Below are positions 10,996-38,192 of a stretch of 38,192 nucleotides of DNA, one piece after another. A program made the translations under genes and the position numbers. The stretch is from a virus. Location: positions 1 to 38,192 of IMG/VR virus record IMGVR_UViG_3300025012_000192; one strand, given 5' to 3'. Each line of letters opens with the position of its first letter. Position 1 is the first letter of the stretch. The notes under the pieces were generated by a model that made no database searches, was not told the DNA's origin, and saw only the letters and a list, made by a program, of their open reading frames with translations.

Positions 10996-11002
10996 AAAAA
11001 AT

Positions 11003-11479: not shown

Positions 11480-11552
11480 AGATTTTGTAATATAACCAAG
11501 CCGCATTAAACCTATCTAAAAACTACAAGTTGATTTACTCACATCTTTTTGC

Positions 11553-11583
11553 CTATTTTAATATTAATAATTTATTAAAATAG
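11553..11583 (+). repeat. perfect AT-rich inverted repeat just before terL
   Basis: CTATTTTAAT (11553-11562) and ATTAAAATAG (11574-11583) are perfect inverse copies around an 11-nt AT loop. The right arm ends 6 nt before the terL ATG at 11590, where a ribosome binding site would be expected and none is visible. It could sequester the start region, bind a protein or be a weak terminator; no long T run follows. Confidence 0.5.
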
Positions 11584-11589
11584 CGTATA

Positions 11590-13263: not shown

Positions 13264-13287
13264 TTGTAAAATTTTTAGAGGTGTGAA

Positions 13288-14970: not shown

Positions 14971-14993
14971 ATACTATTGCGTTAAATAGTATT
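14970..14993 (+). terminator. hairpin after portal gene (weak terminator)
   Basis: AATACTAT (14970-14977) and ATAGTATT (14986-14993) are perfect inverse copies around an 8-nt loop, starting at the last base of the portal stop. There is no uninterrupted T run after it, and the stem is AT-rich, so termination would be partial; an RNA-processing or stability hairpin is equally likely. Confidence 0.35.
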
Positions 14994-15087
14994 GAGTTGT
15001 TATTATTGTGGTGAAAATAAATGCAATAAATAAACAAAGGAATTTGTTTAGGTTAAAGTAATTAATAAATTAAAGGAGAAGTAAAAA

Positions 15088-15288
15088 ATGGCTACAAATC
15101 AATTTAAGGTTCCGGATAGCGCAAAGGGTAGTTTCAATGTGAAACCGCTCGGCACTATGAAAAAGGAAGATATTACAAAAGTTCCATCCGCTCCTGGTAC
15201 ATTAGAAGATGGAAAGGCTGCTTTGAAAGTTACTGCTATTGCTAATAAAGGCAATAAAGGCGGTAAAGGTTTTGCAGAGGCAAGCTAA
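15088..15288 (+). CDS. small head-region protein (66 aa)
   Basis: AAAGGAGAAG stands before the ATG. The product is 66 residues, low in aromatic residues, rich in K, G and A with no hydrophobic core of note (GTMKKEDITKVPSAPG; NKGNKGGKGFAEAS at the end), so it is probably flexible. It sits between portal and scaffold-like genes and could be a decoration or minor head protein; sequence gives no proof. Confidence 0.65.
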   Translation: MATNQFKVPDSAKGSFNVKPLGTMKKEDITKVPSAPGTLEDGKAALKVTAIANKGNKGGKGFAEAS

Positions 15289-15336
15289 GGTTAATTTAGA
15301 AAATGAAAAATACATTAAATACAACGGAGAATAAAA

Positions 15337-16035
15337 ATGGCTGACGAAAAAAAGTTGGATGCTGATGGAAATGAAATTATTGAAGTAGTGGATGATAAAA
15401 AACCTATTACTATAAAAATTGAAGTTCCAAAAGTTGAGCCCAATAAAAGTTATACTGCTGAAGAGGCTCAAAAATTTATTGACGATGCAATTAAGGCAGG
15501 GCAGAATATTGCGAAGGGCCAATTGTATCCTGAAATAACTAAGTTAAAAGGAAAAGTTGAAGCGTTGGATTCAAGTATGCAAGGAAAAGTAAATCCTGAA
15601 GAGTTGGAAAAACTGGTTGCTGAAAAAGCCGTGACTACTCAAAAATTGACGGCTTTGGAAGATGCGTATGTTACTTCAAAACAGCAATTAGATGGCCTTG
15701 AAAACCAGCTAAAGAGTGAAAAGTTAGAAAGTTACAAACAGAAAAAAATAGCTAGTTCGGACGGAAAAATTATTCCGGAATTAGTGGTTGGAAATTCGAC
15801 AGAAGAAATTGACACCTCCATAGAAAAAGCCAAAGTAAAGTATGCTGAAATTCAAAATGAATTAAGGCAGAAATATAATTTACCAACAGAAGTAGAAAAT
15901 AAGAAGTTAGAAAACGAGCAAGAGGAAAAAATAAATATTCCTCGTCTTGGCTCAAAAGCTGATTTAGGCAAATGGGAATCGCAAAGAAAAGATTTGCTTA
16001 AAGAAGTATATGGTAAGTACGGCTTAAATGTTTAA
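15337..16035 (+). CDS. capsid scaffold-like protein (232 aa)
   Basis: Acidic start, then a long predicted coiled coil (about 70-185) rich in E, K, L and Q, and a short C-terminal segment (RLGSKADLGKWESQRKDLL). The charged helical composition and the position immediately before the major capsid gene are typical of phage scaffolding proteins (including DUF4355-type), which guide assembly and leave or are cleaved from the head. No protease domain is visible. The family assignment is by resemblance and context. Confidence 0.75.
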   Translation: MADEKKLDADGNEIIEVVDDKKPITIKIEVPKVEPNKSYTAEEAQKFIDDAIKAGQNIAKGQLYPEITKLKGKVEALDSSMQGKVNPEELEKLVAEKAVTTQKLTALEDAYVTSKQQLDGLENQLKSEKLESYKQKKIASSDGKIIPELVVGNSTEEIDTSIEKAKVKYAEIQNELRQKYNLPTEVENKKLENEQEEKINIPRLGSKADLGKWESQRKDLLKEVYGKYGLNV

Positions 16036-16060
16036 TAAATTAAATTAATGGAGGTCTTAA

Positions 16061-17044
16061 ATGGCTGATCGTTTTACATCCGTGGTAAACACTGGAGTTT
16101 ATGACGGGATTCCGGAAAATGTGTTAAAGTTGCATACTAATGATGTTTTGTTTGCAGCTATGCCCGCAATGAGATTTGATCAATTTGCGGTTGTTCGAAC
16201 TGATTTACAAAGTAACTCTGGCGATACAATTATCTTTTCAAAATATGGTAATTTAACCCGTGGCGGAACCATTGCTGAAAATGCTGATATTGAATCAAAA
16301 GGAATGTCAAAAACTCAGATTACTATTGCTGTTACTGAATATGGTAATGCTGTTGGTTTAACTTCTAAGTTGTTAACTCTTTCTTTCTTAGATGAAATGC
16401 AAAATGCTTCTGTTACATTGGGAAGAGATTATGCATTGGTAACTGATTTAATGTTGAGAACTGCTTTGTTTAGTGCTACTCCTACAGTTCTTTCGGCTTC
16501 AAGTGCTGCTCAAAAAGATATTGGTACTGCGGATACTTTTAAGAAACTTGAAGTGGATACTGCTGTTGAATTATTGTTAACTGGTAATGTTCAGAAATAT
16601 ATTGATGCTAACGGTGAATTCTATGTTTGTTATTTCCATCCTCATCAGTATACTTCGATGAAAAATGATTTGGTTTCTATTCATCAGTATGCTTATGCTG
16701 AATTGATTTTCAAAGGTGAAGTTGGCGAATATAATGGTGTTAGATTTATTGTTACTACTAACTGTCCTAATGGTGCTGCCGTTGCTACTGATGGTGGTTA
16801 TGATGCAACATTAGTTGCTGGTTATCAATATGGTGCTACTGCTGTTGATTCGAATGATGTTGATTTGTATAAGGCGGTTATTTTTGGTGAAAGAGCTTAC
16901 GGTTGGGCAATTGCTCTTCCTGTTGAATTGCGACAAGATCCTGGTCAGACTAATTTTGGTCGAAGAATCCGGGTTGCTTGGTATGCTATTCAAGGTAGCG
17001 GTATAATTAATAATGAAAATTGTGTAGTAATAATCAGTTCTTAG
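16061..17044 (+). CDS. major capsid protein, N4-gp56 type
   Basis: The 327-residue protein follows AATGGAGG. Sequence features fit the N4-gp56 family of HK97-fold capsid proteins: an N-terminal ENVLKLHTNDVLFAAMP segment, GDTIIFSKYGNLTRGGTIAE (about 54-73), a FHPHQYTSMKND segment (about 192-203), EYNGVRFIVTTN (about 223-234) and a C-terminal FGRRIRVAWYAI strand. It assembles the icosahedral shell. Codon use is more U-rich at third positions (GCT, GTT, ACT) than neighbours, as expected of a highly expressed gene. A strong terminator follows. Confidence 0.9.
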   Translation: MADRFTSVVNTGVYDGIPENVLKLHTNDVLFAAMPAMRFDQFAVVRTDLQSNSGDTIIFSKYGNLTRGGTIAENADIESKGMSKTQITIAVTEYGNAVGLTSKLLTLSFLDEMQNASVTLGRDYALVTDLMLRTALFSATPTVLSASSAAQKDIGTADTFKKLEVDTAVELLLTGNVQKYIDANGEFYVCYFHPHQYTSMKNDLVSIHQYAYAELIFKGEVGEYNGVRFIVTTNCPNGAAVATDGGYDATLVAGYQYGATAVDSNDVDLYKAVIFGERAYGWAIALPVELRQDPGQTNFGRRIRVAWYAIQGSGIINNENCVVIISS

Positions 17045-17059
17045 TGTCTTGTTTGATTT

Positions 17060-17095
17060 AATTAGAGCATCTGAAAAGGTGCTCTAATTGTTTTA
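17060..17095 (+). terminator. strong Rho-independent terminator after capsid gene
   Basis: AATTAGAGCA (17060-17069) pairs perfectly with TGCTCTAATT (17080-17089), extended inward by a U-G and a C-G pair around a TGAAAA loop, followed by GTTTTAT. It lies 16 nt after the capsid stop and would raise capsid mRNA level relative to the distal genes. Confidence 0.85.
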
Positions 17096-17126
17096 TAATA
17101 AATTAAAATAATTTGGAGAATAAAAA

Positions 17127-17468
17127 ATGAGCAAGAAAAAAGTTGAAGAAGTTTTGGAATCGAGTGTTCCAAGTAAAGTTGAAACTCTTGAAGAAGGGGA
17201 ATTTGTTGAAGAAGTAGAAGAAGTTGTCGAATTAGAAACTGAAGTTATTCCTATAAAAAATCCGCCAATTGAAAAAGAAGATTTAATAGCTACTGTAACT
17301 AAAAGTAAAGTTCCTGTTGTCGATAAGAGTATGGTAAGAGTTAAGTTTTTGAAAGATTGTCCTGCGGTGTTTATTATTTGCGGTAGAGTTGAAGGACAAA
17401 AAGGCGAAGTAAAAATGATTAAGCATGAACAAGCAAATATTTTACGAAGACAAAATTATGTGGCATAA
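17127..17468 (+). CDS. head-region protein with acidic N-terminus (113 aa)
   Basis: TTGGAGAATAAAAA precedes the ATG. Residues 1-70 are highly acidic and repetitive (E/V rich), probably disordered. The last 45 residues form a compact basic domain (SMVRVKFLKDCPAVFIICGR and QANILRRQNYVA). The next gene begins directly after the stop. Its place after the capsid gene suggests a minor head or connector protein. Not recognised by family. Confidence 0.65.
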   Translation: MSKKKVEEVLESSVPSKVETLEEGEFVEEVEEVVELETEVIPIKNPPIEKEDLIATVTKSKVPVVDKSMVRVKFLKDCPAVFIICGRVEGQKGEVKMIKHEQANILRRQNYVA

Positions 17469-18242
17469 ATGACAACTGTTGAAACAAGTCTGATCGAAAT
17501 TCTTAGAGATAAGATTGCCGATAATCCGGTAAAGGTTATTGATGCTTCTCCTAGTGGAACTGAAGAAATTGCGGATACTGATAATCAAATTTGGTCTGAT
17601 ACTGAATTACTCCGAATATTAAATACTTCTCTTACTCTTATGTTTAAGGGGCGGGTTTCTTCCGTTGATGATTTGTCGGATTACGATCAAGTGCTTGTTA
17701 CGTTGCAAGCGAATATTGAATTACTTTATATGTTGGCTCAAGATTCTGCTCGATACGCAAAATATACAGTTCGGGATGTTGACGTAGAAAAGAGATCTCC
17801 CGGCGAGTTTCTAGATATGGCTGAGGCATTGGAAAATCGCCTTGGAAAATTGGCGAACGAATCTCCAACTGCCGAGACAAGTGGTGTTACGGTTTCTCAA
17901 AGTTTTACTCGTAGAAAAGGAACTGATGTATATACTCAATTAGATGTTATGAAGCCGCAGAAATATGCTCCTCCGGCTAATCTTCCTACATTTAAATTAA
18001 CTAGTGTTGCTACTGGTGTTGAGATAAAAATTGGTTATGCTTTTATTCCGGATTATTCTTATCATCTAATTCAGAGAACAGATATTGGTCTTTTAGAAGA
18101 ATATTTTGTTTTAGAGGAATTAACTTATATTGATACTACTGCTGTTACGGCAACTACTTATGAATATGCGTTGCAAGTTTTTGGATTGAATGGAAATTAT
18201 ACAAGCAAGAAAGAAACAATTACTTATGTTACTCCTACATAA
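17469..18242 (+). CDS. putative head-tail connector protein (257 aa)
   Basis: The N-terminal 135 residues are mostly helical (TSLIEILRDKIADNPVKVI; LVTLQANIELLYMLAQDSAR), the layout of head-tail adaptor proteins that dock beneath the portal. The C-terminal 90 residues (from about FKLTSVATGVEIKIGY) look like a beta sandwich of fibronectin-III type. A helical adaptor fused to an Ig-like domain fits a virion surface or connector part. Position after portal and capsid supports this; the family is not certain. Confidence 0.5.
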   Translation: MTTVETSLIEILRDKIADNPVKVIDASPSGTEEIADTDNQIWSDTELLRILNTSLTLMFKGRVSSVDDLSDYDQVLVTLQANIELLYMLAQDSARYAKYTVRDVDVEKRSPGEFLDMAEALENRLGKLANESPTAETSGVTVSQSFTRRKGTDVYTQLDVMKPQKYAPPANLPTFKLTSVATGVEIKIGYAFIPDYSYHLIQRTDIGLLEEYFVLEELTYIDTTAVTATTYEYALQVFGLNGNYTSKKETITYVTPT

Positions 18243-18256
18243 AAAGCGCAAAGAAA

Positions 18257-18691
18257 GTGAATAGAAATAATATATATAAGGCTGCTATTCTTACGAAAGA
18301 CGAATTGGATTCCCTATCTTCCATATACACTAAAGTAATCGAAGACTGTGGAATTTCTGTAGACTATCATAGTTACATAGAAAGTTTGAATGGGTATTCT
18401 CCGGCGTTTCAAGTGTATATGTTTCTTAGCGGGGAGAATAATGTTACGATTGGAAAGTTTGATGCTTCAACTGTTTTGTTTGCAATTATACCTACTGAAG
18501 CGTTGAAAGAGTTAGAAATTACTCCTAGTAAAAATGATAAGGTTGTTTATTCCAATAAACCTTTTTATGTTCGTAAAATTTCTTATCTTGATAAGAATGG
18601 AAATCTCTCCGGAGATTTTGATCATAGTTTTTTGTGTGAATGTGAGCTTGTCCAGAAAACTGATTTGCTCCGAAGTGCCAAATTGTTGTAA
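18257..18691 (+). CDS. putative head-completion protein, GTG start (144 aa)
   Basis: Start GTG at 18257; only AAAGCGCAAAGAAA precedes it, a poor ribosome binding site that includes the AAAAGCGC word. The product has a helical N-terminus and then a beta-rich body (NVTIGKFDASTVLFAIIPTE; KVVYSNKPFYVRKISYLDKN) of the sort seen in small stopper or tail-terminator proteins. By position it should belong to the head-tail joint. Weak evidence beyond context. A 115-nt AT-rich gap follows. Confidence 0.5.
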   Translation: MNRNNIYKAAILTKDELDSLSSIYTKVIEDCGISVDYHSYIESLNGYSPAFQVYMFLSGENNVTIGKFDASTVLFAIIPTEALKELEITPSKNDKVVYSNKPFYVRKISYLDKNGNLSGDFDHSFLCECELVQKTDLLRSAKLL

Positions 18692-18806
18692 AATATTACC
18701 AAAATTTTGTTAATTTTTTATTCTTCTACTACTTGTTTATTCAATTATTATTTACTACCTTTACTTATCAAAAATATCATTTATTAAAATATAACGGAGA
18801 ATTAAA

Positions 18807-22327: not shown

Positions 22328-23551
22328 ATGAACATTGATGCGTTATTCATATCTTCTATTTTAAAAGAAAAATCCGCAGAAAAATTTCGCATAGCAGTAA
22401 AAAAAATTAGCAATGATAAATTAGTTGGTATAGAGAAAAATGTATATCAATTTATTAAAGATTATTATAGACAATCTGATGGAAAGATACCGAGTGTAAA
22501 AGCCGTAAGAACTAAGTTCCCAGAAGTGGAACTTATTCAACCAAGTGATTCAATTGAATTTTATATTGATGAATTACAGAATCGAGAGAAGTATGATAAA
22601 CTCACTACGGCGAATACCGCCATTCAAAATAAACTTTTTAATAAAGATATAGTTGGGGCTATTGATGAGTTAAAAAAATTAAATTCGGCGATAGGAAAAA
22701 TAGCTGTTGAGGATTCAACTACGGTAAGAAGTAATTTCGGCGAAAGAATAAAAAGCTATTTGAATGCAAAAAGAAATGATGGAAAGATAGGTTGGCAAAC
22801 CGGATTTGAAGCTATAGATACTCATATAGGTGGATTGAGTGATGAGTATGTGGTTATAATGGGAGCCAGGGGTGTGGGAAAGTCGTTCAATTTATTAATG
22901 ATTGCAAAGAATATTTGGCTTCAAATGGATAGGCCGGTATTTTTGGTTACGAATGAAATTCCCGCTAAAAAAATGGGTATGCGCTTAGATACTATATTGT
23001 CGGAGGTTTCTTACTCAAAATACCGAAAGGGATTATTGGGGTCAAAAGACGAGCAGAAAATAAAAAAATTATCTGAAATATATAAAATACTTCCGGAATT
23101 TTATATAACTAATGGGGCGGGTAAGAGTGTTGATGATATTGAATTTGAGATAATAAGTGTTGATCCTAAACCCGGGTTGCTTTTAATTGATGGGTTATAT
23201 TTGACGGATATGGGATTTAAGGGTGAGTATGAAAATACGGCGGCGGCTTCAAGAGCGTATCAACGATTGAAACAAAAGTTAGGTATTCCAATGATTGTAA
23301 CCACTCAAATGACTGCCGATCATCAAACAAAATATGCAAGGGCAATAGAGGAGGATGCTGATATTGTTTATTATTTGAAACAAGATCCGGCTTTTAGAGA
23401 TATGAAAAGAATGAATTTAGTATTTACAAAAATTCGGGATGAAGATAGTTATTTGAAATTGCAGTTGAATTGGAACTTTGATAAATGGGATTTTTCGCAG
23501 ATAAAAGATGATTATGAGGGTGATTCTGATGCCGAAGTCTCAGTTAGCTAA
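22328..23551 (+). CDS. DnaB-like replicative DNA helicase
   Basis: TAAGGAG before the ATG. 407 residues: a helical N-terminal domain (about 1-125), linker, and a RecA-fold motor with Walker A GARGVGKS (179-186), the DnaB-type TNEIPAKKMGMRL segment (208-220, Glu210 in the catalytic position), Walker B LLLIDG (284-289) and PMIVTTQM as sensor strand. It would form the hexameric fork helicase, loaded by the DnaC-like protein and coupled to the primase at 26431. Slightly shorter than bacterial DnaB, as usual in phages. The 3' end overlaps the RNase H-like gene by 23 nt. Confidence 0.88.
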   Translation: MNIDALFISSILKEKSAEKFRIAVKKISNDKLVGIEKNVYQFIKDYYRQSDGKIPSVKAVRTKFPEVELIQPSDSIEFYIDELQNREKYDKLTTANTAIQNKLFNKDIVGAIDELKKLNSAIGKIAVEDSTTVRSNFGERIKSYLNAKRNDGKIGWQTGFEAIDTHIGGLSDEYVVIMGARGVGKSFNLLMIAKNIWLQMDRPVFLVTNEIPAKKMGMRLDTILSEVSYSKYRKGLLGSKDEQKIKKLSEIYKILPEFYITNGAGKSVDDIEFEIISVDPKPGLLLIDGLYLTDMGFKGEYENTAAASRAYQRLKQKLGIPMIVTTQMTADHQTKYARAIEEDADIVYYLKQDPAFRDMKRMNLVFTKIRDEDSYLKLQLNWNFDKWDFSQIKDDYEGDSDAEVSVS

Positions 23552-25650: not shown

Positions 25651-25902
25651 ATGAAATTCGATGAAAAAAAAGATGCTATAAGGCATTTGAAATCTATTTT
25701 AGGTGATGCGTGTAAGGTGGAGGATAATGGGCAAGAAGTTTTAATCTATGGGGCTGATGTTGAGTCGGCTTATATGTATATGACGGGAAATTCTGAATCG
25801 GTTAAAATGCGGTTGATTTATAAAATTAAATTAGACGAACTTGGTCGCTACTGGCATTCTTATTTGAATAAAAATGGTATATTCATAGAGATGAGTGGTT
25901 AA
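25651..25902 (+). CDS. hypothetical protein (83 aa)
   Basis: AAAAGGAGCG ends 14 nt before the ATG, inside the HAD gene's tail. A soluble alpha/beta-looking protein (AIRHLKSILGDACKVEDNG; VKMRLIYKIKLDELGRYW). No family recognised. The homing endonuclease gene begins immediately after its stop, which may mark an insertion point. Confidence 0.6.
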   Translation: MKFDEKKDAIRHLKSILGDACKVEDNGQEVLIYGADVESAYMYMTGNSESVKMRLIYKIKLDELGRYWHSYLNKNGIFIEMSG

Positions 25903-25903
25903 T

Positions 25904-26431
25904 ATGAAAGAAGTGTGGAAGGATATAATTAATTTTGAAGGGATATACAAAGTTTCAAACTTGGGCAGGGTTAAATCTTTGCGAAGAATTCGCACTTGTG
26001 CGCACGGTGGTTTTAGTAAAACAATTATACTAAAGGGAAGAGTTAATCCCGATGGCTATATACATGTTAGTTTGCATAATAAAAAAATTAAGGATATTTC
26101 AATACATAGATTAGTTGCTTTAATGTTTATTTCAAATCCGGAAAATAAACCTCAGGTTAATCATAGGGATGGAAATAGACAAAATAATAAGGTAGATAAC
26201 TTAGAGTGGGTTACTATTAAGGAAAATGTTTGTTATTCATTTACTATGGGATGGCATGTAGGTAATTTTGGAGTTAAAAATGGGGGGTGTAAGTTAGCCG
26301 AAAAGCAAGTTAGACAAATACGAAAATTATTGCAGAAAGGATTTAGGCATAATTATATAGCTAAATTGTTTAATATATCGAGAACAAATGTTACTAATAT
26401 TAAAAACAGAAAGCGTTGGGCGCATTTATAA
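25904..26431 (+). mobile_element. HNH homing endonuclease (NUMOD4-HNH)
   Basis: A GTG at 25895 is in frame; the ATG at 25904 is preferred because it follows the previous stop. 175 residues: NUMOD4 module at about 1-45 (VWKDIINFEGIYKVSNLGRV), HNH core with His68 in IHRLVALMF, Asn86-His87-Arg88-Asp89 and VDNLEWVT, and a C-terminal helix-turn-helix (about 120-170, LAEKQVRQIRKLLQ and YIAKLFNISRTNVTNI). Free-standing homing endonucleases cut an allele lacking them and spread by repair. Sandwiched between a replication-region gene and primase with TAATG coupling, it looks like a recent guest. Confidence 0.85.
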
Positions 26432-27426
26432 TGGAAATAAATCGCCAATTAAAAACCGCCATAATATTAATGTTGGAACAGTTAGGGGTTGATACTGATG
26501 GATATCGAGAAACTAATGGAAATCTTCAGATTCGTTGTCCGTTTGCTGGTTGTGAAGATTCTTCCCATGCGGATGGGATTGATAGTAATCCTAGTTTTGG
26601 AATTAAATTAAATGGAAACAAATTTCAATTTAATTGTTTTACCTGTTCGGATAAAAAAGGAAATAGTTTAATTGAATTAATTCAAATGCTGATTGAACAT
26701 AAGGTTATTAAAGACAGTGGAAATGCGTATGCTTTACAAAATGCAATTAAAATAAAATTTCCAAAATATTACGAAAAAATTGTTCCAGAAGAAAAAAGGA
26801 AGGATGAAATGGATTTGTCTGTTTATGAAGAGTTAGATTCTGATTTTTATGACTATAATTTTAATAGAGGGTTAGATCGAAGAACTATTGTAGAATGTGA
26901 TTTGGGTTATGATTTGGTTAATAAGCGGGTGATATTTCCGGTAAAAAATCGGCGAGAAGAAAATGTAGGTTATGTAAGTCATTCTATAGAAGGAAGGAAA
27001 CCTAAGTATTCTAATGAATGCGATACTGGAAAGTATTTGTATTTAGAATGGTTGATAAAAGGGAAGATAGGAATAATTACCGAAGGAATTTATGACGCAT
27101 TATTAACTTATCAGCATGTGAGAAATTTGCACTTATTGGATAAATATTCGGTTGTGGGAATGTTTGGTGCAGAAATAACAACCATGCAAATTAAAAGACT
27201 GGCTATGCATTTTGATCGGTTGGTGTTAATGGGGGATAATGATGAGGCTGGAATTAAGATGGAAAAGACGATATGGAAAAGAGCGCACAAAAAAATACCG
27301 CTTATAATGAAAGTAATATATAAAGGAAAGGATCCAGGGGAAATAAAAGATTTGGCTAAGTTTGAAAAGTATTTTAATGGTAAATTGCCATATAATGCAT
27401 TAGGAATTTTAGATGTTAAATATTAA
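26431..27426 (+). CDS. DnaG-type DNA primase
   Basis: Start ATG at 26431 overlaps the endonuclease stop (TAATG); an in-frame TTG 15 nt upstream is less likely. 331 residues: a CHC2-like zinc module with CPFAGC (36-41) and CFTC (69-72) plus His46, then a toprim catalytic domain with TEGIYDAL (217-224), GDNDEAG (268-274) and KDPGE (300-304). It makes RNA primers at the fork for the polymerase encoded next. The C-terminal helicase-binding domain is short. Followed by a 147-nt gap with regulatory signals. Confidence 0.9.
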   Translation: MEINRQLKTAIILMLEQLGVDTDGYRETNGNLQIRCPFAGCEDSSHADGIDSNPSFGIKLNGNKFQFNCFTCSDKKGNSLIELIQMLIEHKVIKDSGNAYALQNAIKIKFPKYYEKIVPEEKRKDEMDLSVYEELDSDFYDYNFNRGLDRRTIVECDLGYDLVNKRVIFPVKNRREENVGYVSHSIEGRKPKYSNECDTGKYLYLEWLIKGKIGIITEGIYDALLTYQHVRNLHLLDKYSVVGMFGAEITTMQIKRLAMHFDRLVLMGDNDEAGIKMEKTIWKRAHKKIPLIMKVIYKGKDPGEIKDLAKFEKYFNGKLPYNALGILDVKY

Positions 27427-27573: not shown

Positions 27574-29634
27574 ATGTTAGTACAAAATAAAAATCAATTA
27601 CCGGAATTAAATTCGATTCCTAAATTAATTGCTATTGATACTGAAACTCTCGATGGAGTTAATGGAATTGAAGGCTATTCGTTTGCATATGTTTGTGATA
27701 AAAAAATTAAAAGTTTTTTTGTTCCGGTTGCTTACGAATTTTCGGGGGAAGAAAGTAATAAGTTTGTGAATGTAGACTCTGAGTTCGCTTTCGGCTATTT
27801 ATCTAAACTATGTAAAAATAGAAGAATAATATTTCACAATGCAGAATTTGATTTAACTGTGTTGGAAAAAAATTGCAAAATAAAAATAGATGATGATAAG
27901 TTTGAAGATACTATGCTTTTACATTGGGTGTTTGATACGGAAAGAAAGCAAGGTTTGAAAGCTATTATGAAGAATGAATATGGGAAAGAGGTTTTAACTT
28001 ATGAAGAAGTTAGGACAATGGGCTTTGAAGAATTTTCTAAGTATGCGGATAATGATGCAAGGTTTACTTTATTTCTTTATGCAAAAATGATGGCGGAAGC
28101 AAAAAAGCATCCAAAAGCATATGAAGGGTATAAAAAATATGAACTGCCTTTAGTAAGAGTTCTTCAGGCAATTAATCATACTACTAATTATGTAAGGATT
28201 GATGAACCATTATTAAAAAAATATTGTGATTTAGCAAGTAAGGAGTTAGAGCAAATTTATAAATTATTAAAAAGTAAACTGGGGGATATTAATTTTAGGT
28301 CGGGGGTGCAGTTGGGAGAGGCTTTAGAAAAAGTTGGTTATATAATTGAAAAGAAAAAACCTACTGTAGGAATGATAGCAAAAGCCGCAAAAAAAGGTGA
28401 GGAGGCAGTCGGAAATTTTAATTTAGATGAAAAAGCAATTAATAAATTGTATAAAAAGCATAAAGGATTGATTTTTGATTTATTGATTTATAATCGTGGG
28501 ATTGAAAAATTAAATTCAACCTATGTTTCAGCGATGGCAGATAAAATTGAGAAAGTAAATAAAGACGTTTATTTGTTAAAAGGTTTTCATTTTATGCATC
28601 ATGGGGCCAGAAGTGGAAGACTTTCTTCTACGCATCCTAACATGCAAAATCAACCGAGAGATAGAATTATTTTTAAGTTTGCTTATATGAATTTGTTGAA
28701 AGATTTGGACGTATTAAAAGGTTCTACTTTATACGTCGATGATGAAAAATTTTATGGGTATTGTTTGTTGTCGAAGGATTTTGAAGCGTTGGATGAAAAA
28801 GAGCAAAAAGAATATAAAGAATTAGCAGATAAACATAAGATACTAACAAAGACTTTGAAGTTTTTGAAAGATCACGATTTTGAAAGTTGCAGTGTAGATA
28901 TTAGACGGCTTTACATTTCAATGCCGGGAAAGGTTTTTGTTGATTCGGATTTGGGGCAAATTGAATTAAGAATGATTGCGCATTTGTCCAAAGATAAGGT
29001 AATGTGTAAATCATTTAATGATGGTAAAGATTTGCATAAAGATGCTGCTGAAAATATTACTAAACTTGCCGGTGTTAAGGTTACTAGACAGGATGCGAAG
29101 CCACTGAATTTTGGGTTAATTTATGGACTGCATTGGACTGGATTAGCTCGAAATACTGGAATGAAAAAAGCAAAAGCAAAACAAATATGGGAATCGTATT
29201 TTGTAGTGTATGAAGGAGTAAAAAAGTTTATTGATAGAATTCATACTTCGGCAAGGGTTAGTCATTATGTTCAAACTCTTTCTGGTAGAAGAAGAAATAT
29301 AAATGAACTGGGAATAAACGATTATAGCGATAGTAAGAAAGCATTTATGCGAAGGAATAATGCGGAGAATGCAGCTGTTGCAACGGTGGTATCCGGTTCG
29401 AGTAGGGATTTATTAACTCTTGGAACTATTAATTTTTATAATGATTTTGTTAAAACCGGAAAGTGTAGAATTGTAGTTCAAGTGCATGATGAGTTGTTAA
29501 TTGAATGTGATGAAAAAATCGGCGAAGAAATAAAAAATAAAGTTAAAGAATATATGGAGAATGGTATGAGGTTAAGTATCCCGGTGATCGCTGAAGCAAA
29601 TATCTCGAAAACTTGGAGAGGGGCGCATAATTAA
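27574..29634 (+). CDS. family-A DNA polymerase with 3'-5' exonuclease
   Basis: AATGGAGGAATTAA before the ATG. 686 residues. Exonuclease: IDTET (Asp22, Glu24), NAEFD (Asp93) and YADND (Tyr157, Asp161), a complete DEDDy set. Polymerase: SGRLSSTHPNMQNQPRD (about 347-363), motif A DSDLGQIELR (Asp459 region), motif B RQDAKPLNFGLIYG (505-518, with K509 and F513), and motif C VQVHDELLIE (Asp639). About 75 extra residues sit between QNQPRD and the DIRRLY strand before motif A. It is the replicative polymerase. No 5'-3' nuclease domain. Confidence 0.93.
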   Translation: MLVQNKNQLPELNSIPKLIAIDTETLDGVNGIEGYSFAYVCDKKIKSFFVPVAYEFSGEESNKFVNVDSEFAFGYLSKLCKNRRIIFHNAEFDLTVLEKNCKIKIDDDKFEDTMLLHWVFDTERKQGLKAIMKNEYGKEVLTYEEVRTMGFEEFSKYADNDARFTLFLYAKMMAEAKKHPKAYEGYKKYELPLVRVLQAINHTTNYVRIDEPLLKKYCDLASKELEQIYKLLKSKLGDINFRSGVQLGEALEKVGYIIEKKKPTVGMIAKAAKKGEEAVGNFNLDEKAINKLYKKHKGLIFDLLIYNRGIEKLNSTYVSAMADKIEKVNKDVYLLKGFHFMHHGARSGRLSSTHPNMQNQPRDRIIFKFAYMNLLKDLDVLKGSTLYVDDEKFYGYCLLSKDFEALDEKEQKEYKELADKHKILTKTLKFLKDHDFESCSVDIRRLYISMPGKVFVDSDLGQIELRMIAHLSKDKVMCKSFNDGKDLHKDAAENITKLAGVKVTRQDAKPLNFGLIYGLHWTGLARNTGMKKAKAKQIWESYFVVYEGVKKFIDRIHTSARVSHYVQTLSGRRRNINELGINDYSDSKKAFMRRNNAENAAVATVVSGSSRDLLTLGTINFYNDFVKTGKCRIVVQVHDELLIECDEKIGEEIKNKVKEYMENGMRLSIPVIAEANISKTWRGAHN

Positions 29635-30621: not shown

Positions 30622-31119
30622 ATGGAATTATTGAATAATTGGAATAGAATTACTAAAGGAGTTACAGAGTGGGAAATGCAAGAGCAGGTTGATGCGTTTC
30701 TTAGAGAATATAAATTTCAGCATTGGAATGGGGAATGGTATACGGAACTTCCTAAAATTGTCCTTAGAGAGTTTAGGGTTCCCGAGGTTAATAGAATTTC
30801 GGATCATGTTGTGTTGCTAAATAAAAGAAGGGTTGTAAATTTTGAATGCAAATTGGATGATATCGGCGTGGTAATAAAACAAGCAAAGGATCATTTACGT
30901 TGGTGTGATTATTCAATTATTGTCATTCCTCCCGATAGAAGATATATAGCAAATAGTTATAAATTAGATTGTATAAGAAGTGGTATTGGGTTGTATTATT
31001 GGTTTAAGGATATTGGAATGTTTGAGTTTATGCTTCCGGATTTTAACCGAAAGAAAGACATGGAGTTACGGGGTAAAATAATAAAACGAATTATTGAAAA
31101 AGCGCAGAGAAAAAAGTGA
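30622..31119 (+). CDS. PD-(D/E)XK nuclease-like protein
   Basis: ACGGAGAATTAGTA precedes the ATG. The 165-residue product has a nuclease core: Asp61 in RISDHVVLLN, FECK with Glu75 and Lys77 after the beta strand RRVVN, and Gln87 in VVIKQAKDHLRW with a following strand YSIIVIP. This is the order of the PD-(D/E)XK fold used by resolvases, restriction enzymes and VRR-type nucleases. Next to the branch-migrating helicase, a structure-specific endonuclease is plausible. Overlaps the helicase start by 4 nt. Confidence 0.7.
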   Translation: MELLNNWNRITKGVTEWEMQEQVDAFLREYKFQHWNGEWYTELPKIVLREFRVPEVNRISDHVVLLNKRRVVNFECKLDDIGVVIKQAKDHLRWCDYSIIVIPPDRRYIANSYKLDCIRSGIGLYYWFKDIGMFEFMLPDFNRKKDMELRGKIIKRIIEKAQRKK

Positions 31120-33923
31120 TACTAAAAAGTTTTCTTTATATACCAGAAAGTATGTTTGATTATAAACTTGCTAAAAGTCTTGTTATTGAAAATCCGGAGT
31201 ATGATAAAAGATTGAATTCTGGGTTGCCTTTGGGAGATATGGAAGCGGTTTATGTTTTGTATAAAAAGTTTGAAAAAAATGGAAAAGTATTTTATAGAGT
31301 TCCAAGATATGCATTCGGAAATTATTCGGAAGTGTTAAAACAATATCCGCAATTAGTTAAGGGTTATTCGGAAGTAAAAGAGTGTATTGAATTCAAGGAA
31401 AGTTCTATTGAATTCAATCCTTCGCAAAAGGAAACTATAGAAAAAACAATCGCTATGTTAGAAAAAGAGTTAGGAGCTATTGTAGTTGCTGCGACGGGTG
31501 AAGGTAAGAGTCAGTTATTTATAAAAATTATGTGCCTTTTAGGAATGAAGACTTTGATTCTTGTGCACAAGGACTTTTTAATTGGACAATGGAAAGAAAA
31601 TTTATTGAAATTAACTAATTTAAAAGAAAATGAAATTGGTTTATTGAAGCAAGGAAAATTTATTGATGGTAAAGTCGTTTTAGGAAGTATGCAAAGTTTA
31701 ATGCGTGGAACTATTGATAATAGTATAAATGATAAATTTGGTTTAGTTTGTGGTGACGAGATACATCATATAGGGGCCAAGATGTTTCTTCGGGCGTTTA
31801 CTCGTTTTAACTCTAAATTGCGTTGTGGGCTATCGGTTGTCGGTGATACACGAATTTTTATATCTCATAACGATATTATAGAACATCTTGAGATTCAAGA
31901 GTTTTATAATAGATTTAATTTTACGAGGAATAAGTGGAATATTGTAGATGGGTATAAAATTAGATCTTTTAATGGAAAAGAATTTATTTGGAAAAATGTG
32001 ACTGGTGTATTAAAGCATTCGGTTGGAAAGAAAAAAATATTTCAATTTTTATTGGATAAGAATGTAACAGTTGCACTTACCGAGGATCATTCTACTTATA
32101 AAGTTGTTGGAAATAGTTACAAGTTTATTAAAAGGGATAAAAAATATATCGCTTCGTTAGAAGAAGTTTTAGGAAAAGATTTAAAGGTTGGCGATTATTT
32201 GCTTCTTGAAGATAAAATAGATTCTTTGGATTCTGTAGATATTATGGAATTTAATATTCTTGAATATATGACTGGTAAATTTTATGTTGCTGGGGATTAT
32301 ACAAAATGGATTGAGAATAATATTACTTTATTAAATGGATATAAATGGCATTATAAAAAAAGACATAAATTTAGAAACGGAAAATACGGGGTTTTTATTC
32401 CGGGTGATATGTTTAGCAAATTTAATAATATACCGGATTGTGGAACAAAAATTTATACCGAAGGCTCGTGTGGTCATTGGCTTTCGTATAAAATTCCCGT
32501 TAATGTGATATCTTATTTATTAGGTTTTTATTTAGGAGATGGTTGGGTTTCTGGGGGTCAGTTGTCTTTTGCTATTGGGATTGACGAATATGATAGGTTT
32601 ATGAAAAAGCTGAATTTGTTAATTCCTTATTCAAATTTTGGAGTATTTAAAAGAGTTATGAGGGGAAAAAGTTATGAAATTAAAATAAATTGCAGTCCAC
32701 TCGCTAATTTTTTTAAGACAATCACAAACGGGGCAAAATCGTACAATAAATTTATTCCAAAGGAAGTCTATTCTTTCTCAGAAAATAATATTAGAGAGTT
32801 TATTTCTGGTTTAATGGAGTCCGATGGCCATTTAGGTAAAAAGAAATTACGATATTATTATACAACTACTTCAAAGAGACTTGCAGATGATATAGTGCAA
32901 ATTCTTAAACGAGTTAATGTGGTATCCTCTGTCAGTAATTTCCCTTCTAGAAAAGGCGGTATTATAGACGACAGACAAATAAAATCAAAGCGAATTAAAT
33001 ATGTTGTTAATTTTTCATCATATGAATTGCATGGAGATAATACGGGCTATAAAGGTAGACGTTTTCCTTTTATTATGAATGATTTGGGGGGCGTTCCTGC
33101 TAAGATTAGAAAAGTGTCTTTGGTCAAGGATGTTAAAAATGTTTATGATATAAATGTGGAGGGTACGAATTGGAATACGTTCGTTGGCTCTGGTGTTTTG
33201 GTTCATAATAGTGCTACGCCAGATAGGGAAGATAAGATGGAGAAACTTTATTACTATCATCTTTCAAGTAATTTAATTATTCATAATAATGTTCGAAATG
33301 TTGGTAGTGAGTTTTATGTAATTGAATATGAAAGAGTGAAAGCGTGGAAATGGTATCCAGCTTTTATTCCGTTTAAGATTCAATTAATTCATAATATTGT
33401 TGCTGATGAAGTTCGGAATAAAATTATTTTAGATATGATTGTTGAACTTAGAAAAAAAGGCAGAAAAATATTGGTGCTATCTGAGCGAATATCTCACCTT
33501 ACTGAGTTAATTTACTCAACGGGAAAGCGGTTGCCTTCTGATTCTTTGGTGCGATTTTTTGGTGCAAAAAGTTTGACAAAAAAAGAGCGGGCCGAAGGAG
33601 TGAAGCAAGAGAAAGTAAAAGATCCAACAAAAGAAGAATTGATAAATGGTGATGTGATATTTGGAACATATAGTAAAGTGAAGGAGGGTGTTGATATTCC
33701 TCAATTGGATACTTTGATATTTGCTACTCCGTTATCAAGTAAAACTACTGTAATTCAAGCGAAGGGAAGAATAGAAAGATTTGCAGAAGGAAAAGAGAAA
33801 CCTGTAGTAATAGATATATATGATACTGATAAATCATTACTGATTGGAATGTTTCAGAAGCGAAAACGATTGTATAAAGAATTGCAAATGAGACAATTAC
33901 ACTTATTTAGTGATATATTATAA
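31116..33923 (+). CDS. SF2 DNA helicase (UvsW-like) interrupted by an intein
   Basis: GTG start in a GTGA overlap, weak ribosome binding site. The 935-residue precursor contains a 459-residue intein (240-698); after splicing a 476-residue helicase remains. Motifs: NPSQKETIEK as Q-like region (101-110), Walker A AATGEGKS (125-132), DEIHH (214-218), SATPDRED (699 on), GTYSKVKEGVDIPQLD (motif V) and QAKGRIER (881-888, motif VI). It resembles T4 UvsW, which unwinds and branch-migrates recombination intermediates. Activity should need splicing, since motif III is split. Confidence 0.88.
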   Translation: MILKSFLYIPESMFDYKLAKSLVIENPEYDKRLNSGLPLGDMEAVYVLYKKFEKNGKVFYRVPRYAFGNYSEVLKQYPQLVKGYSEVKECIEFKESSIEFNPSQKETIEKTIAMLEKELGAIVVAATGEGKSQLFIKIMCLLGMKTLILVHKDFLIGQWKENLLKLTNLKENEIGLLKQGKFIDGKVVLGSMQSLMRGTIDNSINDKFGLVCGDEIHHIGAKMFLRAFTRFNSKLRCGLSVVGDTRIFISHNDIIEHLEIQEFYNRFNFTRNKWNIVDGYKIRSFNGKEFIWKNVTGVLKHSVGKKKIFQFLLDKNVTVALTEDHSTYKVVGNSYKFIKRDKKYIASLEEVLGKDLKVGDYLLLEDKIDSLDSVDIMEFNILEYMTGKFYVAGDYTKWIENNITLLNGYKWHYKKRHKFRNGKYGVFIPGDMFSKFNNIPDCGTKIYTEGSCGHWLSYKIPVNVISYLLGFYLGDGWVSGGQLSFAIGIDEYDRFMKKLNLLIPYSNFGVFKRVMRGKSYEIKINCSPLANFFKTITNGAKSYNKFIPKEVYSFSENNIREFISGLMESDGHLGKKKLRYYYTTTSKRLADDIVQILKRVNVVSSVSNFPSRKGGIIDDRQIKSKRIKYVVNFSSYELHGDNTGYKGRRFPFIMNDLGGVPAKIRKVSLVKDVKNVYDINVEGTNWNTFVGSGVLVHNSATPDREDKMEKLYYYHLSSNLIIHNNVRNVGSEFYVIEYERVKAWKWYPAFIPFKIQLIHNIVADEVRNKIILDMIVELRKKGRKILVLSERISHLTELIYSTGKRLPSDSLVRFFGAKSLTKKERAEGVKQEKVKDPTKEELINGDVIFGTYSKVKEGVDIPQLDTLIFATPLSSKTTVIQAKGRIERFAEGKEKPVVIDIYDTDKSLLIGMFQKRKRLYKELQMRQLHLFSDIL
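31833..33209 (+). mobile_element. LAGLIDADG intein inside the helicase gene
   Basis: It begins at Ser240 (SVVGDTRIF, block A) and ends at VLVHN (698), with Ser699 as the +1 nucleophile. Block B TEDH is at 322-325; block F starts at VYDINVEGTN. Two LAGLIDADG motifs, LLGFYLGDGW (468-477) and FISGLMESDG (562-571), each with the catalytic Asp, mark a homing endonuclease. Splicing rebuilds GL-SATPDR, the SF2 motif III. The N-terminal residue is Ser instead of the usual Cys. All splice residues are present, so it looks active. Confidence 0.92.
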
Positions 33924-34009: not shown

Positions 34010-34516
34010 ATGATAGAAAAAAGCGCATTGGTAAAAATCATTCCGAAAGAACAATTAGAAGCTACTGAAAAAGAAATTACTGCTGTTGTAAAAGCAACCG
34101 ATACAAATGAGTTGCATGTATCGTATAAGAAAATAAATTCTTTTGTGGAGTTCTTTAATTCGGCGGTAAAAAATGAAGTAATTTCTCGTATTAAAAAAAC
34201 CATAAAGAAAAAAGGAAATAAAGTAGAAACCGAATTAGGGGAAATTTCTTTAGTTGAAAGGGCTAACTTCGAATATGATGAAGATAAACTATTGAAGTTT
34301 TTGAAAAAGAAAAAATTATTGCCCGATAGTTTATTTAAGATTGATTGGGAAGTTGTTACAAAAAATCTAAAAGAATTGGAAATACTGGAAGAGAAAGGTT
34401 TGGTACAGAAAAAGTTGAAAATGGATTCTACTAAGGCTGAAAATTTGGTTGTTAAATATCCGGAGTTAGTTGACTTAATTCATAATAGTCCAACTTATTA
34501 TTTGAAAAATTTATGA
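34010..34516 (+). CDS. hypothetical protein (168 aa)
   Basis: The frame is open from a TTG at 33983, but AAAGGAGGA at 33992-34000 selects the ATG at 34010. The product is helical and basic (FNSAVKNEVISRIKKTIKKK), then an ordered part VETELGEISLVERANFEYDE around 72-91 and a Lys-rich helix. It ends with a polar segment. The TELGEISLVER block recalls a phage protein group of unknown role, but I cannot name it. ATGA overlap with the next gene. Confidence 0.65.
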   Translation: MIEKSALVKIIPKEQLEATEKEITAVVKATDTNELHVSYKKINSFVEFFNSAVKNEVISRIKKTIKKKGNKVETELGEISLVERANFEYDEDKLLKFLKKKKLLPDSLFKIDWEVVTKNLKELEILEEKGLVQKKLKMDSTKAENLVVKYPELVDLIHNSPTYYLKNL

Positions 34517-34959
34517 CATCGTATTACGAAAAACATAAAGAAGAAATAAAAGAACGGCAAAAAAATCTTTACCATAAGGATAAAGAATTTCGTAAAATTC
34601 AGATTCAAAGAGTTGCTGAATATAAGAAAAGAAAAGCTAAAGAAAAAAAGCTGCAAAAAGAACAAATAAAATTAGATAGAAAAGTTTGGCGCAAAGTAAG
34701 AATAGATAATGTAATTGTGGAGTGTTGTAGAATAGCTTTCTTAGCTTCGGCTTTAGGTAGGGGAACAAAACGATTAAGAGAATGGGAGGCAATGGGAAAA
34801 TTTCCGAAAACTATTTTGGTTAAAGGAATGAGATATTATACTAAACCACATTATACAATGGTAATGAATGCGTGGAATCGAGCGGAAGAAGGAAAAGATT
34901 TAAAATTGTTTTTTGAAATAGTAAAGGATAAATGGGATGAAACTTATAAATTTAATTAG
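34513..34959 (+). CDS. MerR/excisionase-like DNA-binding protein
   Basis: ATGA overlap at the start. 148 residues: a basic coiled-coil N-terminus (about 1-62, KHKEEIKERQKNLYHKDKEF), then a MerR-type winged helix in which CRIAFLASALGRGTKRLREW (about 72-91) forms the helix-turn-helix and GKFPKTILVKGMRYYT the wing (95-110). This could be a regulator, an excisionase-like architectural protein, or a DNA-tethering factor. No effector domain follows. The basic N-terminus suggests nonspecific DNA contact. Confidence 0.65.
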   Translation: MTSYYEKHKEEIKERQKNLYHKDKEFRKIQIQRVAEYKKRKAKEKKLQKEQIKLDRKVWRKVRIDNVIVECCRIAFLASALGRGTKRLREWEAMGKFPKTILVKGMRYYTKPHYTMVMNAWNRAEEGKDLKLFFEIVKDKWDETYKFN

Positions 34960-35873: not shown

Positions 35874-36977
35874 ATGGCAAAGTTCAAGAAGAATCAATTA
35901 GTTGTAGTTGATGATGGTGGGGATGTTGTTTTTGCTGGCGTAGTTTCTGAAGTCGGCGAAAAGAAAATCAAAGTAACTTTTGGAAAAGGTGCAAAGGCTA
36001 AGACAGCCGCTTATCCGTTATCTCAAGTTTTTGATAAGGTGGAATACGAAAATCGTGAAGAGGATGAAGAACCTGAAGTTATTGTAAAAAAAGGCAAAAG
36101 TAAAAAAGCGCCCGAAGCAAAAGTCGAAGAAGATTTAGATCTTAGTGATATTGATGAAAATATTGATAATGATCTAAATGAATTAGGTGCTGAAGAGGAA
36201 GAAGGTTTAGACGATGAACCAGTTAAATCAAAAAATAAAAAAGCGGTTGAAGAGGATGAAAAAGATTTAAGTATTACTGATGATGAAGTTGTTAAACCAA
36301 AAAATAAAAAAGCCGCTGATGAAGTAACGGAAGAAGGAGAAGATAATGATGACTGGTTTGCAATAGGCGATGAGGAAGATAGTTCTACTTTTGCGAACCC
36401 TGTTAATTCTACTTTTAGATTTGGTTTGAAAGAAAGTGAATCAGCTTTATTAACTTTTGTTACTGGAAAACCGCTTACGTTGAAGGAGCATAATATGCGA
36501 GTTAATGGAAAGTGGGGAACTAATAGAACTTGTTTAACTCCTGGTGGGCAACGATGTCCGCTGTGTGAAAATGGAAAAAGAGCGGCCACAATAAAAGCGT
36601 TCTTTGTAGTAGATCATAGAAAAGTGAGCGGAAAAGATGGGAAGATTTATCAGAATCAAGTTAGAGTATTGGTGTTGAAACAGAAGGCGTATAAGATATT
36701 TAAGACGGTTTATTTAGATTATTTTGAAAATGCTGAAGATATAGATTTAACCGGATTAAGAATTAAGGCAACTCGTTCAACTGCGGATAAGTCCCCAGGT
36801 TCAGGTGATATTTTTGTTTGTAAAGAAAGTAATGTAAAACTATTGCCGGAATGGAAGAAAAATAAAGATGGAAAGGCTTACGATGTTAATATGCTGAAAG
36901 CCGAGTTCAAACCGCAATCATATAAAGAATTGGCTAAGTTGGTTAATTTAGTTGATGATGTATCTAATGATGAATAA
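35874..36977 (+). CDS. phage ssDNA-binding protein with zinc motif and acidic linker
   Basis: AAAAGGAGCAGTAGAAT before the ATG. 367 residues in three parts: an N-terminal SH3/KOW-like beta domain (1-55, KKNQLVVVDDGGDVVFAGVV); an acidic disordered linker (60-170) with two near-repeats NKKAVEED and NKKAADEV; and a C-terminal OB-like DNA-binding domain with EHNMR (His206), TCLTPGGQRCPLC (Cys220, 228, 231) and KAFFVVDHRKVSG. The Cys/His set fits zinc-stabilised gp32-like SSBs. It coats single strands for UvsX and polymerase. Acidic regions in SSBs usually contact partners; here it lies in the middle. Confidence 0.82.
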   Translation: MAKFKKNQLVVVDDGGDVVFAGVVSEVGEKKIKVTFGKGAKAKTAAYPLSQVFDKVEYENREEDEEPEVIVKKGKSKKAPEAKVEEDLDLSDIDENIDNDLNELGAEEEEGLDDEPVKSKNKKAVEEDEKDLSITDDEVVKPKNKKAADEVTEEGEDNDDWFAIGDEEDSSTFANPVNSTFRFGLKESESALLTFVTGKPLTLKEHNMRVNGKWGTNRTCLTPGGQRCPLCENGKRAATIKAFFVVDHRKVSGKDGKIYQNQVRVLVLKQKAYKIFKTVYLDYFENAEDIDLTGLRIKATRSTADKSPGSGDIFVCKESNVKLLPEWKKNKDGKAYDVNMLKAEFKPQSYKELAKLVNLVDDVSNDE

Positions 36978-37033: not shown

Positions 37034-37231
37034 ATGGCAAAAAAGAAAAACGACGGTTGGGAAGAAAGAGAAAGTGGAGTTCTTATTTTTCCAGGAGTAA
37101 ACTATGTTTATGCAATTGGAAAAGCGGAGAAAGATACACTTTTATTATTAGATTCTGGAAATCTTCGTACTACATTATGTGTTGCATCAGTAGAGAGAGC
37201 TAAAAAAATTGCAAAATTGTTGGAACCATGA
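37034..37231 (+). CDS. hypothetical protein (65 aa)
   Basis: TTGAGGTCAAA precedes the ATG. The product has a polar N-terminus, then a small beta fold (SGVLIFPGVNYVYAIGKAEK, DTLLLLDSGNLRTTLCVAS) and a basic terminal helix. No domain recognised. ATGA overlap with the recombinase gene suggests they are co-translated. Confidence 0.65.
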   Translation: MAKKKNDGWEERESGVLIFPGVNYVYAIGKAEKDTLLLLDSGNLRTTLCVASVERAKKIAKLLEP

Positions 37232-38192
37232 AAGAAAAAAAACAAGTAATAGAGGAACCTAAAAATACTTCGGCAAAAGATATATTATTGAAGTTGAAGA
37301 ATAATATAAATGCGCATTACGAAAGAAAGGTTGTTATTCTTGGCAGTGAAAAAACCGAGCTCCCAAAAATAGAAACCGGAATATTTTCTATTGATGTAGA
37401 AACTGAAGGTGGAATTCCAAGAGGTAGGTGGATAATACTGGTTGGTGATGAATCTTCTTTCAAATCAACTTTGATGTATCATATAGCTGGAAGAATGCAG
37501 CGTATTTGTGCTACATGTATGTCTGGAATGATTACGGAAAAATTTACTAAAAAAGTTTTGCTCCCAAGTGAACTGGATAAAAGTAATGAAAATATTGAAG
37601 TTGGAAAGAATGGAGAATTGTATTCTAAAAAATATTTCGCCAATAAAAATAAAATGAATGCCTATTGTCCAGGAGAATTATTAACTCATACAAGGGAAGT
37701 AAACCTTTTAGAATATGAATTAGAATGCTCTAATTGTGATAGTCCGGAATATTCTATATTTCTTTTGTTAGATAGTGAACGAAATTATACAAAGAGTTGG
37801 GCAAGTAGATGGGGAGTTATTCATTATTATACAGCACTTTCTGATACAAGTCATTCTCAAATGACCGGCGATATTATCCGAGAAGCAATGGGTACTGGAA
37901 AGGTTTCGTTTGTTGCTGTAGATAGTTTGGATTCTCATGGTGCTGCCGAAGAGATGACTGCAAGTATGGAAGAATGGCAAGTTGGTTTACAAGCTAGGGT
38001 GTGGAATAAAATTGTTAGAATAATTACAAGTCTTTTGAATACAACTTTTATTTATACTTATACGAATAAAGAAGGAAAAAAAATTGCAGAAGAAAAACAT
38101 CAGGAGCCTGTGATTTGTATTATACAACAGTGGCGTGAAAAAATAATGTCTTTTGGGGATCCAAAAGTAATGGGTGGTGGTAGAGGAAAGAA
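37228..38192 (+). CDS. UvsX/RecA-like recombinase, 3'-truncated by window edge
   Basis: Starts in an ATGA overlap and is open to the end of the window (321 complete codons). Visible: LPKIETGIFSIDVETEGGIP and RGRWIILVGDESSFKSTLMY, with Walker A GDESSFKST (73-81), where Phe replaces the usual Gly before Lys as in T4 UvsX. A Cys-rich insertion follows (CATC at 94-97, later YCPGE and CSNCD). Walker B is FVAVDSLDS, and IIQQWREK is followed by VMGGGRGK, the UvsX/RecA L2-type region. It would drive strand exchange. Its C-terminus lies outside. Confidence 0.82.
   Translation, partial: MKEKKQVIEEPKNTSAKDILLKLKNNINAHYERKVVILGSEKTELPKIETGIFSIDVETEGGIPRGRWIILVGDESSFKSTLMYHIAGRMQRICATCMSGMITEKFTKKVLLPSELDKSNENIEVGKNGELYSKKYFANKNKMNAYCPGELLTHTREVNLLEYELECSNCDSPEYSIFLLLDSERNYTKSWASRWGVIHYYTALSDTSHSQMTGDIIREAMGTGKVSFVAVDSLDSHGAAEEMTASMEEWQVGLQARVWNKIVRIITSLLNTTFIYTYTNKEGKKIAEEKHQEPVICIIQQWREKIMSFGDPKVMGGGRGK

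What the first reader, a model, noticed from the sequence alone, without database searches (positions are those of the whole stretch)
31833..33209. Full LAGLIDADG intein inserted in helicase motif III
The intein runs from Ser240 to Asn698 and splits GL|SATP, the SF2 motif III that couples ATP hydrolysis to unwinding. All splice blocks (A, B, F, G) and both LAGLIDADG Asp residues are present. It begins with Ser rather than the usual Cys. Inteins favour conserved active sites; the site within SAT, in a UvsW-like phage helicase next to a PD-(D/E)XK nuclease, makes this a useful case of mobile DNA silencing the helicase until splicing.
Basis: partly seen in the sequence, partly recalled or inferred. 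Interest (0 to 1): 0.72.

Follow-up and report, generated by a model that had tools for sequence, protein, structure and literature searches.

The report
Phage helicase intein at motif III
A phage DNA-repair-type helicase gene carries a self-removing protein insert (an intein with its own gene-targeting enzyme) in one of its most conserved motifs; the insert itself is of a known kind, but close relatives sit at the same spot in several different helicase families of uncultured viruses, so this short motif looks like a shared landing site.

Summary
ORF 31116-33923 (+) is a 935-residue precursor: N-extein 239 aa, intein 31833-33209 (459 aa, Ser1 to Asn459), C-extein 237 aa; joining the exteins gives a 476-aa SF2 helicase with motif III GL|SATP intact. 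Splicing blocks and both LAGLIDADG aspartates are present, profile and fold comparisons agree, and homologous helicases in other phages have the site empty. It is a class 1 LAGLIDADG intein with Ser1: a new member of a known kind. 'UvsW-like' is only loosely right: T4 UvsW is distant. The PD-(D/E)XK neighbour could not be confirmed, and silencing until splicing is inference. Inteins in different families are up to 44% identical where the helicases are 18-19% identical, which points to transfer between non-orthologous genes at motif III. Splicing residues are kept in all 12; endonuclease aspartates are lost in three. No full-length copy was found in about 85,000 prokaryotic species genomes or 50,697 GenBank phages, within the sensitivity of those searches.

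The parts
31116..31832 (+). N-extein of SF2 helicase (239 aa; GTG start, overlaps the upstream ORF's stop); Walker A ATGEGKS 31491-31511, motif II DEIH within 31752-31769
   Evidence: PF04851 ResIII E 1.7e-17 over residues 98-240, phrog_16 DNA helicase E 8.8e-40
31827..31832 (+). Gly-Leu, last two N-extein residues; first half of motif III GL|SATP
   Evidence: translation; contiguous GLSAT in phage homologues without intein
31833..33209 (+). Intein, 459 aa, Ser1 to Asn459, class 1 with LAGLIDADG homing endonuclease
31833..31862 (+). Block A SVVGDTRIFI with Ser1 nucleophile
   Evidence: TIGR01445 above cut-off from residue 2; Ser1 invariant in 12 of 12 allelic inteins
32079..32090 (+). Block B TxxH (T83-E-D-H86)
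   Evidence: invariant T and H in 12 of 12
32517..32543 (+). LAGLIDADG motif 1 LLGFYLGDG, catalytic Asp236
   Evidence: Asp here; Cys in L028, Asn in L094 and L109
32802..32828 (+). LAGLIDADG motif 2 ISGLMESDG, catalytic Asp331
   Evidence: PF14528 residues 320-369; Cys in L028 only
33141..33158 (+). Block F VYDINV with Asp439
   Evidence: invariant Asp in 12 of 12
33192..33209 (+). Block G GVLVHN, penultimate His458 and terminal Asn459
   Evidence: invariant H and N in 12 of 12
33210..33221 (+). SATP, second half of motif III; Ser+1 nucleophile
33210..33923 (+). C-extein of SF2 helicase (237 aa, stop included); motif V region EGVDIP 33684-33701, motif VI QAKGRIER 33756-33779
   Evidence: PF00271 Helicase_C E 2.9e-5; phrog_9690 DNA helicase

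Best explanation
It is a mobile class 1 intein with a two-motif LAGLIDADG homing endonuclease, inserted between Leu239 and the Ser of motif III (GL|SATP) of a phage SF2 helicase of the XPB/RAD25-like type. Inferred steps: the 935-aa precursor folds its Hint domain, Ser1 attacks as an oxygen nucleophile (N-O shift), Ser+1 takes over the N-extein (branched ester), Asn459 cyclises with help from His458, and the 476-aa helicase with an intact motif III is released with the 459-aa intein. The free intein cuts empty helicase genes at the motif III codons during co-infection and is copied in by repair. It belongs to a family of allelic Ser1 inteins in viral contigs that has reached the same motif III position in several SF2 families, most simply because the endonuclease tracks DNA coding for a motif those families share. 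Shown here: sequence anatomy, fold resemblance, empty-site homologues, shared site, conserved splicing residues. Not shown: splicing, cutting, homing.
For: Exact anatomy and spliced frame. Intein profiles. AlphaFold model (mean pLDDT 65.8) matches full inteins: TliVMA 7qsu Foldseek E 5e-17 and VIA Z 19.7 over 334 residues, PI-TkoII 2cw7 Z 16.9 over 399, PI-SceI, PI-PfuI. Empty-site homologues with GLSAT/GLTAT contiguous, and a shared replication module: RcZahn primase/gp32-like/helicase/RecA, DLP5 primase/helicase/regulator/RecA, L005 primase/helicase/HTH/SSB-like/RecA. Same-site Ser1 inteins in 11 other full-length viral loci. Splicing residues invariant in 12 of 12 while endonuclease Asp are lost in 3 of 12. 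Intein identity between families exceeds extein identity (L019-L020 44 vs 18%; L020-L021 44 vs 19%), but is similar within families (L020-L022 48 vs 46%; L021-L094 43 vs 39%).
Against: No splicing or cutting was assayed. The intein tree is poorly resolved (no starred branch) and host family labels cluster on it more than in shuffles (4 changes, shuffled mean 7.1), so jumps between families would be few; only one of the group tests in the 12-row tree rejects one clade, at p 0.037. The window's intein is the most divergent member (23-31% identity) and lacks the VGPxSxxELRGGPF start of most others. PF14890 is under its cut-off.
Confidence: 0.93

Rival explanations
1. The 459 residues are a permanent domain of this helicase (an accessory Hint-like or LAGLIDADG-like domain that is not removed).
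For: It is a continuous open frame, and motif III would begin GLS even in the unspliced protein because intein residue 1 is Ser.
Against: Terminal His-Asn plus Ser+1, invariant block B and F residues, same-site copies in unrelated helicases and contiguous motif III in homologues.
Confidence: 0.03
2. The intein's splicing part works but the endonuclease is already inactive, so the element is fixed and no longer mobile.
For: Three relatives have lost one or both catalytic Asp (L028 C/C, L094 and L109 N/D); decay is usual in the homing cycle.
Against: Both Asp are present in the window copy and PF14528 is well above its cut-off.
Confidence: 0.2
3. Inteins at motif III in different SF2 families arose separately or were inherited from a common SF2 ancestor rather than transferred between families.
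For: Host labels cluster on the intein tree; one clade per family is not rejected for three of the four groups.
Against: Ser1 and full-length similarity in all; identity between families (to 44%) is far above that of the exteins (18-19%) although rates within a family are alike.
Confidence: 0.12

Closest known systems
Large class 1 LAGLIDADG inteins with solved structure: TliVMA/PhoVMA (7qss, 7qsu, 7qst), PI-TkoII (2cw7), PI-SceI (1vde), PI-PfuI (1dq3)
   Same: Hint splicing domain split by a two-motif LAGLIDADG endonuclease; whole-length structural match
   Different: About 14-18% identity; other host genes; the VMA inteins have Cys1 (entries are C1A mutants), this one Ser1
Ser1 inteins (Aes123 PolB1, 9hth, an S1A mutant entry; from own knowledge a phage intein, and thermococcal PolB inteins also have Ser1)
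   Same: Ser as first residue; DNA-replication host protein
   Different: Aes123 PolB1 is a split intein in a DNA polymerase; weak similarity only
Mycobacteriophage inteins in functional motifs of TerL, RecB-like and a HepA-related helicase (PMC5050341)
   Same: Phage inteins placed at active-site motifs of DNA enzymes
   Different: Other host genes, or a helicase whose site is not given in the passages read; no cross-family allele at motif III described there
Lhr2 helicase inteins in RecA1/RecA2 of archaea (PMC8301817) and the 'helicase-b' allele (PMC4071816)
   Same: Inteins in SF2 or ATP-dependent helicases of cells
   Different: Exact insertion residue not given in the passages read, so identity with the motif III site is open
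RcZahn gp58 and DLP5_059 phage helicases
   Same: Homologous SF2 helicases with like neighbours
   Different: No intein: motif III is contiguous

Membership tests
Intein (class 1) | In-frame insertion whose removal restores a conserved host protein | tested here: met
   476-aa helicase restored; empty-site homologues
Intein (class 1) | Block A nucleophile Cys/Ser at position 1 | tested here: met
   Ser1, 12 of 12
Intein (class 1) | Block B TxxH, block F Asp, block G His-Asn, Ser/Thr/Cys at +1 | tested here: met
Intein (class 1) | Hint fold | tested here: met
   VIA Z 15-17 to mini-inteins over 126-157 residues at rmsd 2.4-3.5; model pLDDT moderate
Intein (class 1) | Protein splicing | not testable with these tools
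   needs expression
LAGLIDADG homing endonuclease | Two LAGLIDADG helices with catalytic acids | tested here: met
   D236, D331; I-DmoI match Z 13 over 153 residues
LAGLIDADG homing endonuclease | Site-specific cutting of the empty allele | not testable with these tools
   needs assay
Class 3 intein | No Cys/Ser/Thr at position 1 and a block F Cys nucleophile | tested here: not met
   Ser1 present, block F VYDINV has no Cys
T4 UvsW helicase | Specific grouping with T4 UvsW | tested here: not met
   E 4e-5, 21% identity over 269 aa; T4 UvsW placed with other groups, though on a long branch
SF2 helicase, XPB/RAD25-like | Motifs I, II, III, V, VI; closest profiles and structures | tested here: met
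   ResIII, phrog_16, XPBII 5tnu E 2e-16, motifs aligned
PD-(D/E)XK nuclease (upstream ORF 30622-31119) | Family or fold match | tested here: inconclusive
   no family match; single-sequence model pLDDT 34

The most novel reading that the evidence does not exclude
A lineage of Ser1 LAGLIDADG inteins carried by viruses has adapted its endonuclease to DNA coding for SF2 motif III itself, so that it can home into non-orthologous helicases (XPB/RAD25-like, RadD-like, a further ResIII group, SNF2) at the same residue: a mobile element that follows a protein motif across families instead of one gene.
Probability: 0.4. Interest if true: 0.62.

Novelty: new member of a known kind. Interest (0 to 1): 0.42.

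Why it matters
The intein alone is ordinary. The set of same-site relatives makes a general question testable: whether homing endonucleases can spread across gene families by recognising DNA that codes for a shared catalytic motif. The 12 natural variants, with intact and with decayed endonucleases and in about four helicase types, are ready material. A Ser1/Ser+1 intein in motif III would also be a candidate switch that couples splicing to helicase activity.

Tried and rejected
Permanent domain: rejected by empty-site homologues. Class 3 intein: rejected (Ser1, no block F Cys). Close relatives by the window's own intein or extein halves in viral contigs: few or none. Phage hits to the endonuclease that I read (phiHSIC, Vibrio 424E50-1, Eggerthella LE2-3, AVP1) have their inteins at or near Walker A and not at motif III. 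Genome hits with the intein alignment cover mostly the endonuclease part; L085 and L089 lie in a different host gene, not a helicase. Samples of 398, 285 and 292 genomes of three phyla had no match at E 1e-30; viral members searched with the same model gave E 1e-101 to 1e-191, but there was no positive control inside those samples. The near-identical contig L092 (99.85% over 14.4 kb) does not reach the helicase. The single-sequence fold of the upstream ORF was useless. No held paper was found that describes inteins in SF2 motif III; InBase was not available.

Full report
Observation. The ORF at 31116-33923 (+, GTG start, 935 aa) reads without a stop through an N-extein, an insert and a C-extein. 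G+C of insert and exteins is alike (30%, 31-32%), so composition gives no sign of a recent foreign origin.

Identity. TIGR01445 (intein N-terminal region) and PF14528 (LAGLIDADG_3) exceed curated cut-offs; PF14890 spans residues 18-459 but lies just below its own. The AlphaFold model (pLDDT 65.8; residues 2-34 and several loops are poor) finds whole inteins with endonuclease: TliVMA 7qsu at Z 19.7 over 334 residues, PhoVMA, PI-TkoII at Z 16.9 over 399, PI-PfuI, PI-SceI, and mini-inteins at rmsd 2.4-3.5. Class 1 features are complete: Ser1, TxxH, block F Asp, His-Asn, Ser+1.

Host gene. The exteins are an SF2 helicase: ResIII, Helicase_C, phrog_16, best solved relatives 7clg, XPBII 5tnu/6p4f, RadD and RAD25. 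The closest annotated phage proteins are RcZahn gp58 (E 7e-43 to the spliced protein) and DLP5_059; T4 UvsW is far (E 4e-5) and does not group with it, though its branch is long. The gene sits in a replication module: DnaB-like helicase (22328-23551), a primase-like ORF (26416-27426; my reading, not tested), family A polymerase (27574-29634), the helicase, a MerR-like HTH ORF (34513-34959, weak match), an ORF read here as gp32-like (35874-36977, my reading) and UvsX/RecA (37228-38190). RcZahn, DLP5 and the metagenomic contig of L005 have a like module with a helicase whose motif III is contiguous. These are natural empty sites. A tblastn of the spliced helicase hit 612 phage records, each with a single place, so no obvious interrupted copy is among them.

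Same-site family. A DNA pattern for HN|[S/T]ATPxRxD in IMG/VR found 8 contigs; most carry a long intein that starts GLS and ends HN at the same residue. Two scans with intein alignments extended this. Together with the window there are 12 full-length, non-identical inteins (L019, L020, L021, L022, L023, L024, L025, L028, L029, L094, L109), one further copy with the same flanks and termini as L021 on another contig (L026) and one partial copy (L027). Every full-length one begins with Ser, and T83, H86, D439, H458 and N459 (window numbering) are invariant. The endonuclease aspartates are lost in L028 (Cys, Cys), L094 and L109 (Asn, Asp). Keeping the splicing residues while the endonuclease decays is what the homing cycle predicts and is the best indirect evidence that splicing is under selection.

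Across helicase families. The host proteins fall into distinct groups: the replication-module XPB/RAD25-like helicases (window, L019, L021; with L094), a second ResIII group (L023, L024, L028), RadD-like proteins (L025, L029) and SNF2 proteins (L020, L022 by Pfam PF00176; L109, with the SNF2-type motif TGTP, by reading only). Group names are my labels. Within a family, intein and extein are similarly diverged (L020-L022 48 vs 46%; L021-L094 43 vs 39%), but between families the inteins stay close while the exteins do not (L019-L020 44 vs 18%; L020-L021 44 vs 19%). The simplest reading is transfer between non-orthologous genes at an equivalent site. Limits: the intein tree has no strongly supported branch, host labels are clustered on it, and one clade for the replication-module group is rejected only at p 0.037 (in the smaller tree it was the ResIII group, at p 0.040). 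Few transfers, not frequent ones, are indicated. The window's intein is a divergent member (23-31% identity).

Range. No full-length relative appeared in genome contigs (84,980 species), in GenBank phages or in samples from three phyla. Collection scans rely on short patterns, so absence is limited to that sensitivity. All members found are in viral contigs of IMG/VR, whose hosts are unknown to me.

Mechanism. Shown: anatomy, fold resemblance, empty sites, same-site relatives. Inferred from established intein chemistry: N-O shift at Ser1, transesterification to Ser+1, Asn459 cyclisation, release of the 476-aa helicase, cutting and homing by the free intein. Splitting motif III should disable the precursor, but that is inference; since residue 1 is Ser, the N-side still reads GLS before splicing.

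Literature. Preference of inteins for conserved sites is established (PMC2814812), as are inteins in phage DNA enzymes (PMC5050341), in Lhr2 helicases (PMC8301817), in a 'helicase-b' allele (PMC4071816) and in helicases of eukaryotic viruses under KOG1123 (PMC5784728; that this KOG is the XPB group is from own knowledge). None of the passages read gives the motif III residue, so prior description of this site cannot be excluded. Verdict: a real intein and a new member of a known kind; the same-site family across SF2 helicases is the more interesting result.

Noticed in passing
L093 1188-2477 and 2470-3729 (IMGVR_UViG_3300033153_008196): A different intein at the same motif III site (GL|Cys1 ... 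HN|SATP) is broken into two overlapping ORFs: helicase N-part plus Hint N-half ends at a stop, and a second ORF with AGGAG before its ATG holds an HNH endonuclease, the Hint C-half and the C-extein. A natural split intein with an HNH in its C-half, or an assembly frameshift.
   Followed up: partly
L020, L021, L022, L023, L025, L094: Several of the helicase genes carry a second intein at another motif: Walker A (L020, L023, L025, L094), motif II between DE and CH (L021) or the motif VI region (L022).
   Followed up: partly
L028 3501-4730: Both LAGLIDADG aspartates of this motif III intein are Cys (YIGCGW, QESCGY) while all splicing residues are kept.
   Followed up: partly
window 25895-26431: NUMOD4 plus HNH_3 ORF, a likely free-standing homing endonuclease, overlapping the start of the primase-like ORF; a second mobile element in the replication region.
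   Followed up: no
window 30622-31119: 165-aa ORF upstream of the helicase, without homologues in the phage collection searched; SDHVV...NFECKL resembles a PD-(D/E)XK site by eye.
   Followed up: partly
L092 (IMGVR_UViG_3300025030_000566): A 16-kb contig 99.85% identical to window 4306-18702, then diverging (92.9% over 254 bases): a very near relative of this phage.
   Followed up: no
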